From NCBI GenBank assembly GCA_029237515.1, contig JARBAV010000360.1, positions 1 to 10,026 of the forward strand: a stretch of DNA of 10,026 nt, read 5' to 3'. The translations under genes and the position numbers were made by a program. This document shows, in pieces, positions 3,161 to 10,026 of this stretch. Below the pieces are notes generated by a model. The model made no database searches and was not told the origin of the DNA. It saw only the letters and a list, made by a program, of their open reading frames with translations. Each line of letters opens with the position of its first letter. Positions within the stretch are counted from its first letter, which is position 1. The stretch comes from Nitrososphaerales archaeon (lineage in GTDB: Archaea > Thermoproteota > Nitrososphaeria > Nitrososphaerales > Nitrososphaeraceae).

Positions 3161-4060
3161 TTGAAAATAGGATATCCTTGCATAAATAATAGAATCCTTA
3201 GGACTGACCCATCTACTTTTAGATTGACATCCTATTCTGAAAACAGGTTAATTCAAACCATTAGAGGCAATTTGACTCATCTAAACCAAATCCTAGAATA
3301 TAATATCAACCACGGCCTATTATTTTTTAGAATTAGCTCAGATCTCATCCCCTTTGCATCTCATCCGATTTGTAAATTGAATTGGTTTGAGCTCTTTCAT
3401 TCAGAATTTGAACAAATTGGCATCTTTATCAGAAAGCATGGTATACGAATTTCAATGCACCCCGATCAATTTGTAATTCTTAACTCTCCAAATTACACGA
3501 TAATAGAAAATAGTATTAGCGAATTAAAATATCATTGCAAAGTTTTGGATGCGATGCAACTTGATGAAACAGCCAAAGTACAGATACACATTGGGGGAGT
3601 TTATGGAAATAAGATTGAGGCATTAACAAGGTTTGCTGCTACTTACACTACGCTTGATAATGCAATCAGACGAAGACTTGTAATAGAGAATGATGACCAT
3701 CTTTATAATTTAGATGATTGTCTTGAATTAAATCGACGAATAAATATTCCGATCGTTTTCGATAGTTTTCATCATGAGTTGTTATCAAATGGTGAGTCAC
3801 TCAGGTTCGCACTTAGGAACGCAATGTCGACATGGAATAAGAATAAGGATGGATTGCCAATTGTCGATTATAGTAGTCCTCATTTAGAAACTGATAAAAA
3901 AGGTATCAAGGGAAGAAGGGGCAAACATGCTGAAAGAATTGATGCACTATCGTTTAAGAAATTCTTGAAGGAAACAGAAAGTCTAGATTTCGATATCATG
4001 CTCGAGATAAAAGACAAGGAAAAGAGCGCTATGAAGGCTCTCAGAATTCTAAATTCCTAA
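3161..4060 (+). CDS. uvsE: UV damage endonuclease (UVDE/UvsE family)
   Basis: DNA repair enzyme that nicks immediately 5' of UV photoproducts and some other lesions, starting an alternative excision repair route. It has 299 residues, the usual UvsE size, and a TIM-barrel fold with a metal cluster is expected. The family start MKIGYPCINN is followed by LFFRISSDLIPFASHPI (54-70, His68), SMHPDQFVI (99-107, His100), QIHIGGVYGNK (141-151, His143), LVIENDDH (173-180, Glu176), VFDSFHH (199-205, Asp201 and His204), KHAERID (His256) and MLEIKDKE (Glu282). These match the metal-binding His/Glu/Asp set known for the family. The region where Thermus UVDE has a modified lysine and a metal-binding histidine reads LPIVDYSSPH here, so those two positions may be Ile and Asp (see findings). 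The gene starts with TTG and stands alone. Confidence 0.92.
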   Translation: MKIGYPCINNRILRTDPSTFRLTSYSENRLIQTIRGNLTHLNQILEYNINHGLLFFRISSDLIPFASHPICKLNWFELFHSEFEQIGIFIRKHGIRISMHPDQFVILNSPNYTIIENSISELKYHCKVLDAMQLDETAKVQIHIGGVYGNKIEALTRFAATYTTLDNAIRRRLVIENDDHLYNLDDCLELNRRINIPIVFDSFHHELLSNGESLRFALRNAMSTWNKNKDGLPIVDYSSPHLETDKKGIKGRRGKHAERIDALSFKKFLKETESLDFDIMLEIKDKEKSAMKALRILNS

Positions 4061-5314: not shown

Positions 5315-5554
5315 ATGAACTTCAAATATATGGCAATTGTAGCAGTCATAGCTGCAACATTAGTAGCAGCAACAGCGATAACTACTGATAGCGCTTTCGC
5401 AACCAAATACAAGGGTAAGAACCAAGCAGCGGCACAAGTAAATGAGTGTGGAAATGGAATCTTGTCTGAGGATGTTGGATGCCAGAACACTGCATCACAA
5501 GTCCAAGGTGACGAAAACATCGTAGACTTGGCTTCTGCACAGTCATTCTCATAA
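5315..5554 (+). CDS. Small secreted protein, paralogue 1
   Basis: A 79-residue protein of unknown function, predicted to be exported. Residues 1-30 form a signal peptide: MNFKYM, a hydrophobic stretch IVAVIAATLVAATAI, then TTDSAFA with likely cleavage after Ala29. The mature part of about 50 residues is polar. It contains KNQAAAQVNECGNG, two cysteines (in ECGNG and GCQNTASQ), VQGDENIVDLASAQ and a Ser-rich end. The two cysteines could form a disulfide bond outside the cell. The Q/N/G/S pattern SQxQGDxNxVxxASAQ loosely recalls curlin-type repeats, a weak resemblance with no direct support. A paralogue with the same layout follows at 5938. A T-tract terminator lies 48 bases after the stop, so the gene is probably its own transcription unit. 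Confidence 0.75.
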   Translation: MNFKYMAIVAVIAATLVAATAITTDSAFATKYKGKNQAAAQVNECGNGILSEDVGCQNTASQVQGDENIVDLASAQSFS

Positions 5555-5859: not shown

Positions 5860-5937
5860 AATATTTATCAGATTAATGAGAGCGCACGAACTTGCTTAAT
5901 GCAAATAACCAAGAAGATCGTCCTGGTTATTGGAAAT
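5860..5937 (+). promoter_or_regulatory. Conserved promoter and leader, copy 2
   Basis: Counterpart of 5241-5314, with AATATTTATCAGATTAATGA, CTTGCTTAATGCAAATAACC and GTCCTGGTTATTGG. The TATTTATC region is the likely TATA element. The ATG within CTTAATGC opens a frame that runs into the coding sequence, but the equivalent ATG in copy 1 is followed by a stop, so it is unlikely to be the true start. Confidence 0.55.
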
Positions 5938-6186
5938 ATGAACACCAAGTATTTTGTAATGGTAGCAGCAATGGCAGTAATGCTCATCGGAGCAACAGCT
6001 TTTGCAACAGACAGTGCGTTTGCAGATGGAAAAAAGAAATATGAAAAGAATCAGGCACTTTCACAAGCAAATGCTTGTGGTAATGGAAAGTTGCCAATGT
6101 ATGTATTCTGTGATAATCAGGCATCTCAGATTCAAGGCGACGATAACGCAGTAAGCACTGCATCAGCCCAACAGGCCGAAGACTAA
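5938..6186 (+). CDS. Small secreted protein, paralogue 2
   Basis: An 82-residue paralogue of the protein at 5315, of unknown function. I chose the ATG at 5938 because MNTKYFVMVAAMAVML aligns with MNFKYMAIVAVIAATL of paralogue 1. An upstream in-frame ATG at 5899 would add 13 residues ahead of the signal peptide and lies inside the conserved leader. The signal peptide ends FATDSAFA (cleavage after about residue 29). The mature part has KKKYEKNQALSQANACGNG, VFCDNQASQIQGDDNAVSTA and an acidic end QQAED. Both cysteines and the CGNG and ASQxQGDxN motifs match paralogue 1, while the residues between are less conserved. The pair looks like a gene duplication including promoter and leader, with a T-rich terminator following. 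Confidence 0.77.
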   Translation: MNTKYFVMVAAMAVMLIGATAFATDSAFADGKKKYEKNQALSQANACGNGKLPMYVFCDNQASQIQGDDNAVSTASAQQAED

Positions 6187-6383: not shown

Positions 6384-6582
6384 AAAGCGAGGAAAGAACA
6401 GCTTCAGTCTTAGCAGAAATGGCAAGACGACAGAGATCCGAAACTAGAAAGTGTAAGATAGGGTTTGGAGACAACAAAACAAGTGAAAAATATACTACTT
6501 CCATCCCGTTTCCCTCTTTGACTCTTCTCCTTGCCAGGAACTCCCAAATGACATCTGAAGGATCCCCCTTAAAGAGGACACG
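6382..6582 (-). pseudogene. Start-less open frame just downstream of the flavoprotein gene, possible remnant
   Basis: On the minus strand, 22 bases after the flavoprotein stop, a frame of 66 codons is open from the TAG at 6583-6585 to TAG at 6382-6384. It begins RVLFKGDPSDVIWEFLARRR and then VKEGNGMEVVYF, which reads like a real protein with an amphipathic helix. There is no ATG until Met27 and no standard start at the left edge, so the piece is a 5'-truncated gene, a non-canonical start, or chance. The opposite strand also has an open frame (ATG 6419 to TGA 6592, MARRQRSETRKCKIG...). Local GC is higher than in neighbouring spacers, which makes chance open frames easier. I favour the minus-strand reading but cannot assign a family. 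Confidence 0.28.
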
Positions 6583-6604: not shown

Positions 6605-7315
6605 TTAGTTATAATATTCCCGATAACGAGAAGCATAGGTATCTGAAACCTCTTTATTCATAACATCTTGCAAGAATTGCCTTCTAATTAAAGTTCCATA
6701 TGTCACCAAGTCACGTGCAAGCATCTTTATCCTATTGGCTAATGCAGAATTAATTGGATTTCCTGTGGAATTAAAGTCATTTCCCCCATTGATGGAAATA
6801 TTATAAGGCATACTCCACCCATAACATTGACGAACTGATGTACGCATTTGATCTGCGACGGTTAATCCTTTTTCATGAGATGCGATAATATACCCAAAGG
6901 TTTTCCCTGCAAATTCTTCCCAGAAGTAATCGAGAAAGTTTTTCATTGCACCAGACATGGATCCATGATAGTCTGGAGTAGCCAAGACAAAAGCATCAGC
7001 CCAGTTGATATCTTTTGTAACAGTATCTAGGACATTTTCGCGATTACCATTGACTTCTCGATACAATTCTTCTGACACTGATCCGCTTGGATCATAAATT
7101 GGCAGCCTTACTTCACGCAAATCGAGCACTCGGGAATCAGAACCATATCTTTTTGCCTCCTCTAGCACCAATTTTAGAGCATGTGTACTGAAAGAGCCTT
7201 TTCGCATACTGCCGGCTATGCCTAAGACATTTACTCGAGTGCTTTGCATATTAGCAGAATTGTCGCTCTGCCCTAGTTTTAAAGTTTGAATTTGAGGTTT
7301 AGTTATACCGATCAT
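6605..7315 (-). CDS. NADPH-dependent FMN reductase family flavoprotein
   Basis: Flavodoxin-fold protein of 236 residues, expected to bind FMN and reduce flavin, quinones, metals or azo compounds with NAD(P)H. The FMN phosphate loop is GIAGSMRKGSFSTHAL (32-47), matching the GSxRxxSxxxxL signature. The second flavin-contact motif is ATPDYHGSMSGAMKNFLDYF (112-131), the family's TPEYxxSxPGxLKNxLDW pattern. The loop YIIASHEKG (142-150) is also typical. Residues 1-25 are a non-conserved extension, and translation from Met23 cannot be excluded. The gene lies 119 bases downstream of the SufR-like regulator on the same strand. It has its own promoter carrying the same inverted repeat as the regulator's promoter, so it is probably the regulator's target. 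The actual substrate cannot be told from sequence. Confidence 0.88.
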   Translation of the reverse strand: MIGITKPQIQTLKLGQSDNSANMQSTRVNVLGIAGSMRKGSFSTHALKLVLEEAKRYGSDSRVLDLREVRLPIYDPSGSVSEELYREVNGNRENVLDTVTKDINWADAFVLATPDYHGSMSGAMKNFLDYFWEEFAGKTFGYIIASHEKGLTVADQMRTSVRQCYGWSMPYNISINGGNDFNSTGNPINSALANRIKMLARDLVTYGTLIRRQFLQDVMNKEVSDTYASRYREYYN

Positions 7316-7337: not shown

Positions 7338-7349
7338 ATTTATAAATAA
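7338..7349 (-). promoter_or_regulatory. TATA element of the flavoprotein gene
   Basis: Minus-strand TTATTTATAAAT lies about 25-30 bases before the ATG at 7315. An archaeal transcript would then start at or within a few bases of the start codon, suggesting a leaderless or very short-leader mRNA. The element overlaps the inverted repeat at 7343-7358, so a bound repressor would block TBP. Confidence 0.55.
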
Positions 7350-7358
7350 CCTGGTTTA
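7343..7358. promoter_or_regulatory. Putative operator TAAAT-N6-GTTTA, flavoprotein promoter
   Basis: Plus-strand TAAAT-AACCTG-GTTTA is an inverted repeat with one mismatch and a 6-base centre. Together with the adjacent CAA it contains TGGTTTACAA (7352-7361), identical over ten bases to the site in front of the regulator gene (8155-8164). The TAAA...TTTA half-sites and six-base centre also match there. Sharing of both core and symmetry between two neighbouring promoters suggests one regulator binds both. From memory, cyanobacterial SufR binds CAAC-N6-GTTG, which has the same layout. Confidence 0.6.
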
Positions 7359-7434
7359 CAAATTATACAAAGTAAGACGATGATATGTTCGTAGTCATAG
7401 AAGATTCATAATACTAGTTTACTCCAGAGCAATT

Positions 7435-8124
7435 CTATAGATAGCCCTCTTTCCTTTCTTTTATCATAAACTTGCATATTGCATCACCCTTGGCGGCTCT
7501 ATGTGTAGTCTGGATATCTGCATCAAGAAGCTTTTCAAACAATTCAGTTTCGATTGAACATGCCTCCCAGTGCCTTTCAGCGATGTGAATAATCGGACAG
7601 TTATACTCTAACAAGACATGCTTTCTGCCTCCTTTCGACTCCTTCTTCGATTCGGCCATATACCCTTCCTCATCTCGAATCCTTGCTAACTCCTTAACCT
7701 GTTTGTCAAAATCCATACCTTTAAGGCGCTTATAGTATAGATCGAAGAGTTCACTCTGACGTTCTCGCAGAACCTTTTCAACGCCTTCCTTACCCATATT
7801 TCTCTCAATAAAATCAAGTGCTTGTGTCGCTATTGCGCTATATGATTTTGGAAAAACTGTCTTACTTTGACTAGTCAGCTGGTAAATCATTTTTGGTCGA
7901 CCCACCTGTCCTCTACTTTCAATTGCTTCTACTAGACCTCTTTGTTGTAATGATGAAAGATGCTTGTGAACTGCCATTCTAGATATTTTCATAACTGCAG
8001 CCAGATCCTCCAGCCCTGCTTGATGCATGACTTTAAGATAATACAATAATTTTTTCTTTGGTTCACTAAATCCATCTGCGATACTTCCTAAATTGCGTGT
8101 GATGGACATTACTTGTATACGCAT
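7435..8124 (-). CDS. SufR-like winged-helix regulator with C-terminal cysteine cluster
   Basis: DNA-binding transcription regulator of 229 residues. Residues 22-84 form a winged helix: AGLEDLAAVMKISRMAVHKH contains the helix-turn-helix, LSSLQQRGLVEAIES follows, and the wing is RGQVGRPKMIYQLT. The C-terminal half has three cysteines in LLEYNCPIIHIA (C176), HWEACSIETELF (C189) and GDAICKFMI (C217). Their spacing, C-x12-C-x27-C, matches the SufR group, in which such cysteines hold an iron-sulfur cluster that controls repression of suf genes. A fourth cysteine midway, present in some SufR proteins, is Asp203 or nearby here. No suf genes lie in the window; the neighbour downstream is a flavoprotein. 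The inverted repeat 21 bases upstream of its own start implies autoregulation. Met6 is an alternative start. Confidence 0.85.
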   Translation of the reverse strand: MRIQVMSITRNLGSIADGFSEPKKKLLYYLKVMHQAGLEDLAAVMKISRMAVHKHLSSLQQRGLVEAIESRGQVGRPKMIYQLTSQSKTVFPKSYSAIATQALDFIERNMGKEGVEKVLRERQSELFDLYYKRLKGMDFDKQVKELARIRDEEGYMAESKKESKGGRKHVLLEYNCPIIHIAERHWEACSIETELFEKLLDADIQTTHRAAKGDAICKFMIKERKEGYL

Positions 8125-8145
8125 AAAGATAGCAACACTAATTCA

Positions 8146-8161
8146 TAAACTATTTGGTTTA
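8146..8161. promoter_or_regulatory. Putative operator TAAAC-N6-GTTTA, regulator promoter
   Basis: Plus-strand TAAAC-TATTTG-GTTTA is a perfect 5-bp inverted repeat with a 6-base centre, 21 bases upstream of the regulator start codon. It contains most of the TGGTTTACAA core (8155-8164) shared with the flavoprotein promoter. The minus-strand TATA-like sequences AATATATTG (8163-8171) and GTTTATGAA (8142-8150) flank or overlap it, so binding would interfere with TBP/TFB. This fits negative autoregulation. Confidence 0.6.
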
Positions 8162-8244
8162 CAATATATTAAAATGCGATAATGTGATTGTTACTTGCTG
8201 CTAGAGTTTGTCCTCATGTTAAAGGCTTTCAAAGAGTCGTCAGA

Positions 8245-8430
8245 TCAATATAAACAAAAAATTGGATTGAACGAATAGCTATAGGGCAGTTCTTGTGAGA
8301 TCTTTGCCAATTGAATAAGCACATTGCACAAATCAATATTTGACATCCCCCAGAGAACGTGTGTCTGTTCATCTCCGGATCCTACCTGTCCTCCTCCTCT
8401 AAGATCTTTGAAATCATGTGTACCGAGCAA
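8245..8430 (-). CDS. Small hypothetical ORF, possible gene or fragment
   Basis: A 61-codon minus-strand frame with a TTG start at 8430, preceded by AGAGGG about 6 bases upstream. It reads LGTHDFKDLRGGGQVGSGDE, then QTHVLWGMSNIDLCNVLIQL, and ends YSYSFNPIFCLY. The composition looks like real protein. The frame remains open about 20 codons further upstream (including LFVYLSNLQSRGLSL) to a TAA, without an ATG, so a longer ancestral protein is possible. The only ATG in frame is Met29. I recognise no domain. It lies 120 bases upstream of the regulator on the same strand, but the putative operator and promoter between them argue against co-transcription being essential. It may be a truncated gene. 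Confidence 0.35.
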   Translation of the reverse strand: MLGTHDFKDLRGGGQVGSGDEQTHVLWGMSNIDLCNVLIQLAKISQELPYSYSFNPIFCLY

Positions 8431-8845
8431 TGATAACCCTCTGCTTTGGAGGTTTGACAGATAAACAAATAATGGTAAAATAATACTATCTTAACAATCT
8501 ATTAACGCTCAAACCTAGTCAATAAATCTTGACTTTTTTATAATATCGGCTACTAAATGTGGTCGGTGTACGCATTATTTATTCTCCTAGACAGTTACTT
8601 CACATATAATATGATCAGGTATAATCTACAACAGATCGGATTTTAGATTTCCAGAACCTGGATATTATTTTGTTCCCAAAAAAAAGGTAAATCCATCAGC
8701 TAATAGATAAGTTGAGCAAATAGAAGGTGGTGGAACTACTAAGAATAAAAAATAATGGCCTTAATATTTATTAAATGCCATTAACTTTGAAATATTTTAT
8801 ATTAGCTAAGCCTATTTTATGTTTACCAATTAGTTTACAAGTCCC
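8431..8845. other. AT-rich spacer with nothing assigned
   Basis: Stop-dense sequence with several T- and A-tracts. Only very short open frames occur, such as a 29-codon plus-strand frame from ATG 8557 and an interrupted minus-strand frame reading VVPPPSICSTYLLADGFTFF at about 8670-8740. None has adequate length, start signal or family resemblance. No RNA gene is recognised. Confidence 0.4.
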
Positions 8846-9120: not shown

Positions 9121-10026
9121 ATGCCACGCCGTCACTCTCAATGTGCACATTCGAGTAATTTCAGTGACAATAGTGGCATACCTCAATTGTCATTTGATGT
9201 CGTATCTATTCTTTCAGGTCTAGGGATTAAATATTCTATTTATAGTTCAAAAGAAGATTTTGATTCGACAAGCATTTATGGCGTAAAAGATATCAAAAAT
9301 GCTTTAAGTGAAGATTTATCCTTTTGTTCCTTAGATGATGCAGAAAAGGCAATAATGGCCATTTCCAAATCAAATGCTAAGGTCATTATTTGTCACCAAT
9401 CGCTGGAGAATCTGGTGTATCCTAGATCCGGAAAGCAACAATCTTTGATATTTGTAAAGAATCCTAGAATGGTTGTAATGAAAATTATAAATGAAATCTA
9501 TTATTCGCCATCTGTAAATAAAAAGAAGAGAATCCGGCAGAATGATAAAATTGTGACGGCTCCTCAGATGTCAGCCATATCTAGATCTGCCAGAATAGGA
9601 AAGAACTGTTCAATTGGTAACTTTACCAAAATAGGGGATAAATGTACAATAGGGGATAATACAGTTGTTGGCGATTGTGTAATTATAGAACATAATACCA
9701 GAATTGGCAAGAATTGCATTATACAGCCTGGAACAGTAATTGGAGCTGATGGTTTTGCTTATGAGAGGTTAGAGGATACTTTAGAACTACAAAGATTCCC
9801 ACATATCGGAGGAGTAATTCTAGGCAATAATGTAGAGATTTGTTCTAATTGTTCTATAGCAAGGGGTTCACTTTCTGATACAATAATTGGAGAAGGAACT
9901 AAACTTGATGCTCTAGTACATATCGCCCACAATGTAGAAATAGGAAGACATTGTGCCTTGACAGCGGGCACTATTATAGGCGGAAGTACTAGAATTGGAG
10001 ATATGTGCTGGACTGGTTTGAATTCA
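9121..10026 (+). CDS. LpxD-like UDP-sugar acyltransferase, 3' end outside window
   Basis: 302 codons are visible and the frame is still open at the window edge. ATG 9121 is the first start after an in-frame TAG at 9115. Residues 1-20 are variable. Residues 22-128 resemble the LpxD N-terminal uridine-binding domain (VKDIKNALSEDLSFCSLDDA, then SLIFVKNPRMVVMKII). From about 150 the protein is a left-handed beta-helix of hexapeptide repeats (ARIGKNCSIGNFTKIGDKCT, IGDNTVVGD). The LpxD signature region follows: GADGFAYE (208-215), IGGVILGNNVEICSNCSIAR (229-248) and VHIAHNVEIG (266-275), where His270 matches the catalytic histidine. Bacterial LpxD N-acylates a UDP-glucosamine derivative in lipid A synthesis. 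Archaea make no lipid A, so a role in acylating a surface-glycan or other nucleotide sugar is inferred. About 40 residues should remain beyond the window. Confidence 0.87.
   Translation, partial: MPRRHSQCAHSSNFSDNSGIPQLSFDVVSILSGLGIKYSIYSSKEDFDSTSIYGVKDIKNALSEDLSFCSLDDAEKAIMAISKSNAKVIICHQSLENLVYPRSGKQQSLIFVKNPRMVVMKIINEIYYSPSVNKKKRIRQNDKIVTAPQMSAISRSARIGKNCSIGNFTKIGDKCTIGDNTVVGDCVIIEHNTRIGKNCIIQPGTVIGADGFAYERLEDTLELQRFPHIGGVILGNNVEICSNCSIARGSLSDTIIGEGTKLDALVHIAHNVEIGRHCALTAGTIIGGSTRIGDMCWTGLNS

What the first reader, a model, noticed from the sequence alone, without database searches (positions are those of the whole stretch)
7343..8161. Shared inverted-repeat operator links a SufR-like regulator to a flavoprotein
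The promoters of the regulator (8146-8161) and of the flavoprotein (7343-7358) carry the same element: TAAA(C/T)-N6-GTTTA with an identical TGGTTTACAA core, at similar distance from the start codon (21 and 27 bases) and over or next to the TATA element. This predicts negative autoregulation plus control of the flavin reductase. From memory, cyanobacterial SufR binds CAAC-N6-GTTG, the same geometry. An archaeal SufR-type regulator controlling a flavin reductase and no suf operon would be a new regulon arrangement.
Basis: partly seen in the sequence, partly recalled or inferred. Interest (0 to 1): 0.72.

Follow-up and report, generated by a model that had tools for sequence, protein, structure and literature searches.

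The report
SufR-like archaeal detoxification regulon operator
A family of soil archaea carries a regulator related to bacterial iron-sulfur sensors, and its likely DNA-binding site sits over the promoters of its own gene and of a changing set of reductase and other detoxification genes, which looks like a stress-response network.

Summary
The two sites lie at 7343-7358 and 8146-8161. Inside this one window they are weak evidence. Across relatives they are decisive: the site extends to TAATTTGTAAAC-N6-RTTTATAAATTA, its right arm covering the TATA box. It stands before the regulator in 25 of 26 upstream regions scored and before the adjacent flavoprotein in 16 of 16. A 70-genome scan gave 59 matches against 1 for the reversed pattern; 27 of 28 genomes with the regulator have it, 4 of 42 others.

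Pattern and matrix scans point to further targets: luciferase-domain (PF17648), SDR, aldo/keto reductase, metallo-beta-lactamase-fold, NmrA and MFS genes; in the window's own genome, a PF17648 gene and an alpha/beta hydrolase. suf genes exist elsewhere in the genome; none of the 30 suf loci scanned carries the site.

Best reading: an autorepressing winged-helix protein of SufR/ArnR type with a conserved three-cysteine, probably Fe-S, sensor that blocks TBP at detoxification promoters. Binding, repression, cluster and signal are inferred. New variant of a known kind.

The parts
7435..8124 (-). SufR/ArnR-like winged-helix regulator, 229 aa (in-frame ATG at 8109 is an alternative start)
   Evidence: ORF; TIGR02702 106.1 bits; 20-member ortholog alignment; predicted wHTH, long helix, alpha/beta C-terminal domain
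6605..7315 (-). flavoprotein, NADPH-dependent FMN reductase family, 236 aa; adjacent target gene
   Evidence: PF03358 94.1 bits against cut-off 24
8139..8168 (-). operator of the regulator gene, 30 bases: TATATTGTAAAC-CAAATA-GTTTATGAATTA (core 8146-8161)
   Evidence: conserved before 25 of 26 regulator genes scored
7336..7365 (-). operator of the flavoprotein gene, 30 bases: TAATTTGTAAAC-CAGGTT-ATTTATAAATAG (core 7343-7358)
   Evidence: conserved before 16 of 16 adjacent flavoprotein genes scored
7338..7346 (-). probable TATA box TTTATAAAT inside the right arm of the flavoprotein operator, centre 27 bases before the start codon (leaderless or nearly so)
   Evidence: sequence, conserved; promoter role inferred from archaeal promoter rules (recalled)
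8141..8149 (-). probable TATA element TTTATGAAT inside the right arm of the regulator operator
   Evidence: sequence; TTTATAAAT or TATATAAAT in several orthologs
7597..7599 (-). codon of invariant Cys 1 of the probable Fe-S site (residue 175 of the alignment, 176 counting the first Met)
   Evidence: invariant in 38 of 38
7558..7560 (-). codon of invariant Cys 2 (residue 188 of the alignment)
   Evidence: invariant in 38 of 38
7474..7476 (-). codon of invariant Cys 3 (residue 216 of the alignment)
   Evidence: invariant in 38 of 38

Best explanation
A dimeric winged-helix regulator of the SufR/ArnR type binds a 12-N6-12 inverted repeat whose right arm contains the TATA box. By covering TATA and the BRE position it keeps TBP/TFB off the promoter, and so represses its own gene, the neighbouring FMN reductase and several unlinked redox and detoxification genes. 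Its C-terminal domain holds three invariant cysteines with the spacing of the mycobacterial SufR Fe-S ligands, possibly with His207 or another residue as fourth ligand. Damage, nitrosylation or oxidation of the cluster would release the DNA and switch on reductases, dehydrogenases, hydrolases or efflux. Shown here by computation: conserved operator, its position, its wide regulon, its co-occurrence with the regulator, the cysteine triad. Inferred: that this protein is the binder (about 0.9), that it represses (about 0.75), that it carries an Fe-S cluster (about 0.65), and the signal (redox, electrophile or NO; open).
For: Footprint at both promoters across genera g1 and g5, with flavoprotein identity down to about 50%. 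59 matches against 1 for the reversed pattern in 70 genomes; present in 27 of 28 regulator-bearing and 4 of 42 other genomes; an earlier, shorter pattern gave 50 against 11. A matrix trained on regulator and flavoprotein sites scores sites before other genes, linked and unlinked: PF17648 genes 11 of 29 scored, all at -48 to -53 from the homology-defined start, at 12.7-31.1 against at most 1.6 for the other 18; SDR 2 of 2; AKR 5 of 16 at 14.8 or more. Two unlinked exact pattern matches in the window's own genome, before a PF17648 gene and an alpha/beta hydrolase. A 55-56%-identical regulator in L124 keeps the operator and has a PF17648 gene directly downstream. Cys175-x12-Cys188-x27-Cys216 invariant in 38 of 38, the same spacing as C203/C216/C244 of Rv1460 (PMC6034842 passages). 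All 38 members match SufR_cyano at E up to 1e-5.
Against: No binding, expression or cluster data. Genomes are related, so the Fisher values (4e-14 overall, 2.5e-4 for PF17648 genes) overstate independence; the scanning pattern was chosen after seeing sites, and many matches lie next to the regulator. PF17648 genes in two regulator-bearing genomes (G053, G043) lack the site, as do 11 of 16 AKR genes at the 14.8 level and 19 of 29 scored flavoprotein paralogs (tallied). Four genomes have sites but no regulator found (G069, G020, G058, G061); for G069 and G058 the contig ends where the regulator should be. One regulator promoter (L024) has no convincing site. In G014 and G018 the regulator frame holds stops, and in G017 and G062 it is in pieces. 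The own-genome hydrolase start lies 67 bases after the site, off the usual position. The right arm overlaps the TATA box, so part of the symmetry could be promoter and not operator. Own-genome matches at three mismatches are at background (17 against 14 for the control).
Confidence: 0.7

Rival explanations
1. The same protein is an activator or dual regulator: the left arm, just upstream of the BRE position, recruits TBP/TFB when the sensor is modified, and the right arm is simply the TATA box.
For: The left arm TTGTAAAC is the most constant part (48 distinct sites) and the right arm coincides with TATA. The archaeal redox regulator OxsR activates from a motif upstream of BRE/TATA (abstract of PMC9426492).
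Against: Positions mirrored between the arms stay symmetrical in 90-100% of 48 sites for TAAA and 75% for the C/G pair. The G of the right arm lies outside TTTATAAAT yet is G in 37 of 48. A TATA-covering site at its own promoter suggests autorepression (inference), and SufR and ArnR are repressors.
Confidence: 0.2
2. The regulator senses thiols or metals directly (a three-cysteine As(III)- or electrophile-binding site) and not through Fe-S; the flavoprotein would be an ArsH-like arsenical or quinone enzyme.
For: Three invariant cysteines suit As(III) (recalled). In G067 and G066 an island with aquaporin, LMW-phosphatase (ArsC-like), methyltransferase and HxlR genes lies just beyond the flavoprotein. 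Weak ArsH match of the flavoprotein (33.7 bits). Targets look like quinone and aldehyde detoxification.
Against: The ArsH cut-off is 292.25 bits. The island is absent from the window and was found in 2 of the 22 named regulator loci searched for it, some of them short. Cysteine spacing equals that of an Fe-S-binding SufR.
Confidence: 0.2
3. The shared sequence is just a strong core promoter (TATA with an AT-rich upstream element) or a chance match, not an operator.
For: Two-site evidence inside the window is weak; the right arm contains the TATA box.
Against: 59 to 1 against the reversed control, and no match in 38 genomes of the same family, 29 of which have a flavoprotein homolog; fixed position before PF17648 and SDR genes.
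Confidence: 0.04
4. A true SufR that controls Fe-S biogenesis as well as the flavoprotein.
For: Family match and cysteine spacing.
Against: No operator-like site in 30 suf loci from 12 genomes (best score 7.5; regulator and flavoprotein sites 12.6 or more), though a locus holds 1500 bases each side at most and may miss a distant operon start; none of the 59 matches lies at a suf place listed. sufB and sufD lie near the regulator in 1 of 80 related loci, a Chloroflexota contig.
Confidence: 0.04

Closest known systems
SufR of cyanobacteria and actinobacteria (sll0088; Rv1460; S. avermitilis SufR)
   Same: N-terminal DNA-binding domain, C-terminal Cys cluster with C-x12-C; Rv1460 ligands C203/C216/C244 have exactly this spacing; inverted repeat AAC-N6-GTT; autoregulation.
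   Different: Below the SufR equivalog cut-off; one Cys of C-X12-C-X13-C-X14-C is missing; the operator half-site is TTGTAAAC and not CAAC; no sign of suf control; archaeal promoter with the operator on TATA.
ArnR of Corynebacterium glutamicum ([4Fe-4S], NO-responsive; hmp and narK)
   Different: Spacing C179/C193/C223 differs; homologues almost only in actinobacteria; different targets.
OxsR of Haloferax volcanii (TrmB family thiol regulator)
   Same: Archaeal redox regulator acting next to BRE/TATA (abstract).
   Different: Single winged-helix domain with one key Cys; CG-rich motif; activator and repressor.
MarR/ArsR-type quinone and electrophile repressors (YodB; function recalled)
   Same: Repress azoreductase-type genes (recalled); winged-helix fold, YodB 5hs7 among the fold matches.
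   Different: Thiol switch in a one-domain protein (recalled); no three-Cys C-terminal domain.

Membership tests
SufR equivalog (TIGR02702) | score above the curated cut-off | tested here: not met
   106.1 bits, cut-off 178.8
SufR equivalog (TIGR02702) | full-length family match | tested here: met
   profile 3-208 of 208; 38 of 38 relatives match at E up to 1e-5
SufR (cyanobacterial) | C-X12-C-X13-C-X14-C cluster site | tested here: not met
   C-x12-C-x27-C: third Cys absent, last one position off
SufR (mycobacterial type) | three ligands spaced as C203/C216/C244 | tested here: met
   C175/C188/C216 invariant in 38 of 38
SufR | inverted repeat with 6-base spacer | tested here: met
   AAC-N6-GTT core; 48 distinct sites
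SufR | operator at suf genes | tested here: not met
   no operator in 30 suf loci; none of 59 pattern matches at the suf places
SufR | binds [4Fe-4S] or [2Fe-2S] cluster | not testable with these tools
   needs spectroscopy
ArnR | C-x13-C-x29-C triad | tested here: not met
   spacing here is x12 and x27
ArnR | TRAPP-like C-terminal sensor domain | tested here: inconclusive
ArnR | NO releases DNA | not testable with these tools
   needs EMSA or SPR
OxsR/TrmB single-domain | single winged-helix domain | tested here: not met
   228-residue model with separate C-terminal domain
FMN_red flavoproteins (PF03358), for 6605-7315 | score above gathering cut-off | tested here: met
   94.1 against 24
ArsH (TIGR02690), for 6605-7315 | score above cut-off | tested here: not met
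   33.7 against 292.25

The most novel reading that the evidence does not exclude
Terrestrial Nitrososphaeraceae, a family of ammonia-oxidizing archaea, run a whole stress regulon through an Fe-S sensor of the SufR/ArnR type. The operator has stayed fixed while the genes under it were exchanged between genera (FMN reductase, AKR, SDR, MBL-fold plus SDR, luciferase-domain plus flavin reductase, NmrA, hydrolase, MFS), and the signal is nitric oxide or another reactive product of their own ammonia oxidation.
Probability: 0.25. Interest if true: 0.8.

Novelty: new variant of a known kind. Interest (0 to 1): 0.58.

Why it matters
Few regulons of ammonia-oxidizing archaea are defined, and genetics in them is hard (both recalled). 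Here is a regulon predicted to base resolution with targets, a positional habit (in many targets the site starts about 50 bases before the start codon, with TATA inside) and a candidate sensor, all testable in vitro with one protein and short DNA. It also suggests that the SufR-type sensor is a broader stress sensor of which suf control is one use: relatives occur in Thermoplasmata, Poribacteria, Paenibacillus and others, and sufB was found near the regulator in 1 of 80 loci. And it shows target swapping under a conserved operator.

Tried and rejected
Chance or core-promoter explanation: rejected. Motif statistics within the window alone: too weak to decide. The loose core TAAACNNNNNNGTTTA with up to 2 mismatches in the own genome gave 1142 matches per strand, fewer than its reversed control (2604), and is useless by itself. 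Three-mismatch scan of the own genome with the extended pattern is at background (17 against 14). Sites of the form TGTGAACTAAAATATTTATAAAT in G009 and G017: one was looked at (L196) and no gene of 60 residues or more starts within 130 bases; set aside. Some matches precede no recognisable target (for example G013:C201, G023:C691, G024:C460). suf promoters: no sites. The MFS target in g7 rests on G043; in G040 the contig ends soon after the site. Fold search with the whole regulator tells only winged helix; the C-terminal domain alone gives weak TRAPP and H-NOX-type matches. In one search the upstream region of flavoprotein L095 was cut wrongly by my script and PF17648 locus L238 had too little upstream DNA; both left out of counts. 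In one search the query I called sufB was in fact the second SufB/D-family gene; one search repeated it with both, same result (L141 only). Upstream regions of the Thermoplasmata and bacterial relatives show related half-sites by eye, not followed. Literature: searches listed no title that reports this regulon (open-licence PMC only; one search was too broad to be informative). The Synechocystis ligand set in PMC13421787 (C164/C171/C206) disagrees with C-X12-C in PMC8593673; not resolved.

Full report
What is in the window. The regulator (7435-8124, minus) and the flavoprotein (6605-7315, minus) lie in the same direction, 119 bases apart. The regulator matches SufR_cyano TIGR02702 over the full profile, but at 106.1 bits against a cut-off of 178.8; the flavoprotein is a PF03358 FMN reductase.

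Strength inside the window. By itself the pattern is not remarkable: 5 matches with one mismatch where 3.19 are expected, reached in 52 of 200 shuffles, and a shared stretch of 10 or more bases in two 100-base upstream regions is seen in 2.95% of 2000 shuffled pairs. The case had to be made with relatives.

Relatives. Of 70 genomes of the same family, 30 match the regulator at E up to 1e-10. I count 28 as orthologs (62% identity or more) and leave out G016 (26% identity) and G035 (73 residues only). In four of the 28 the gene is interrupted or in pieces (G014, G018, G017, G062). In 16 loci of genera g1 and g5 the flavoprotein stands directly downstream, down to about 50% identity. The upstream regions share TAATTTGTAAAC-N6-RTTTATAAATTA. 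The best consensus match beats all, or all but one, of 200 dinucleotide shuffles in 41 of 42 regions: 16 of 16 flavoprotein, 25 of 26 regulator, with L024 the exception. The consensus came from these promoters, and close relatives are among them. Operator columns average 1.66 bits, ungapped flanks 0.60 and 0.61. The right arm contains TTTATAAAT, whose centre is 27 bases before the flavoprotein start codon, as for a leaderless archaeal transcript (rule recalled). The regulator start is probably either 8124 or 8109.

Specificity. A first pattern, TGTAAACN6RTTTATAAAT with one mismatch, gave 50 matches against 11 for its reversed control in 70 genomes. The left-arm pattern chosen afterwards, TAATTTGTAAACN7TTTATA with one mismatch, gives 59 listed matches in 31 of 70 genomes against 1; one palindrome is listed on both strands, so 58 places. 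27 of the 28 regulator-bearing genomes have it, and 4 of the other 42 (Fisher 4e-14, not corrected for relatedness). The four are G069 and G058, where the contig ends beside the operator where the regulator should be, G061 (77% complete) and G020 (83% complete), which keeps a 46-residue remnant of the regulator just before operator and flavoprotein. Of the 38 genomes with neither, 29 have a flavoprotein homolog and no site.

The regulon. A matrix built from 31 distinct regulator and flavoprotein sites was tested on other genes. Genes with the Pfam Luciferase domain PF17648 (a family I recall as DUF5519): loci were held for 30 of the 36 places, 29 had enough upstream DNA, and 11 carry the site at -48 to -53 from the homology-defined start, with scores of 12.7 to 31.1; the other 18 score 1.6 or less. 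Nine of the 11 are in regulator-bearing genomes; two of the 18 (G053, G043) are as well. SDR: 2 of 2 (one search found two). AKR: 5 of 16 at 14.8 or more, plus one at 10.3 in G016, which lacks the ortholog. Flavoproteins: 10 of 29 scored, out of 80 places (loci were held for 30 of them). Gene neighbourhoods show the regulator's neighbour changing: flavoprotein (g1, g5), AKR then flavoprotein (G053), AKR (G025, G021), MFS (G043), SDR (G044), divergent luciferase-domain plus flavin-reductase operon (G060, G062), each under the operator; G058 has that operon and operator but a contig end in place of the regulator. Unlinked sites precede MBL-fold plus SDR genes (G044, G025), NmrA genes (G009, G010, G017), further SDR genes (G044, G058) and, in the window's own genome, a PF17648 gene (C195) and an alpha/beta hydrolase (C20), both exact pattern matches. 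The hydrolase's first start codon lies 67 bases past the site, so its spacing is unusual. A regulator of 55-56% identity in L124 keeps the operator and has a PF17648 gene directly downstream.

The suf question. suf genes are found in 12 of 14 genomes searched, the window's own included (G000:C452); G053 and G060 gave none. No operator-like site is present in 30 suf loci with at most 1500 bases on each side (best matrix score 7.5; regulator and flavoprotein sites 12.6 or more), none of the 59 matches lies at a suf place, and sufB and sufD are near the regulator in 1 of 80 related loci, 56 of which are longer than 9 kb. So it is not an Fe-S biogenesis regulator here on present evidence.

Mechanism. 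The operator covers TATA and the BRE position, so binding should exclude TBP/TFB: repression, with autorepression. Cluster loss or modification should derepress. The targets read as reductive and hydrolytic detoxification. Which signal acts (redox, electrophile, NO, metalloid) is open; NO deserves a test because ArnR is NO-responsive and these are ammonia oxidizers (recalled). Each of these steps is inference.

Verdict. A real, conserved operator and a multi-gene regulon, by a SufR/ArnR-like protein that fails strict SufR membership; a new variant of a known kind. Papers seen: passages of PMC7058544, PMC6034842, PMC13421787, PMC8593673, PMC12343034 (and its section 14), outline and abstract of PMC9426492; the rest only as search listings.

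Noticed in passing
window 6419|6420; L106 6660-9222; L108 7046-9560: Two same-genus relatives carry an island (aquaporin, ArsC-like phosphatase, methyltransferase, HxlR regulator) between the flavoprotein and a small secreted-protein gene; the window lacks it and the alignment with L106 breaks at 6419|6420.
   Followed up: partly
L188 1849-1986 (G020:C352): A 46-residue remnant of the regulator's C-terminus sits just upstream of an operator plus flavoprotein, pointing to loss of the regulator there.
   Followed up: no
window 5315-5554 and 5899-6186: Two similar small, probably secreted proteins in tandem with no Pfam match (similarity by eye).
   Followed up: no
window 8245-8430: Apparent remnant, on the minus strand, of a 132-residue ORF that is open upstream of the regulator in L108 (by eye).
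   Followed up: no
window 8820-8842: Further TTGTAAAC-like half-sites arranged as a direct repeat upstream of the regulator, far from any clear start codon (by eye).
   Followed up: no
window 3161-4060 and 9121-10026: UvdE-type UV endonuclease gene, and a hexapeptide-repeat acyltransferase with a weak LpxD match, cut by the contig end.
   Followed up: no
L336 633-1355 (G044:C207): A distant paralog of the regulator (26% identity) on the same contig as two SDR genes with a weak operator-like site, score 11.0.
   Followed up: no
L141 (Chloroflexota): A relative of the regulator lies next to sufB and sufD (and, by eye, sufC) and has GTCAAC-N6-GTTAAT upstream, a SufR-like arrangement.
   Followed up: no
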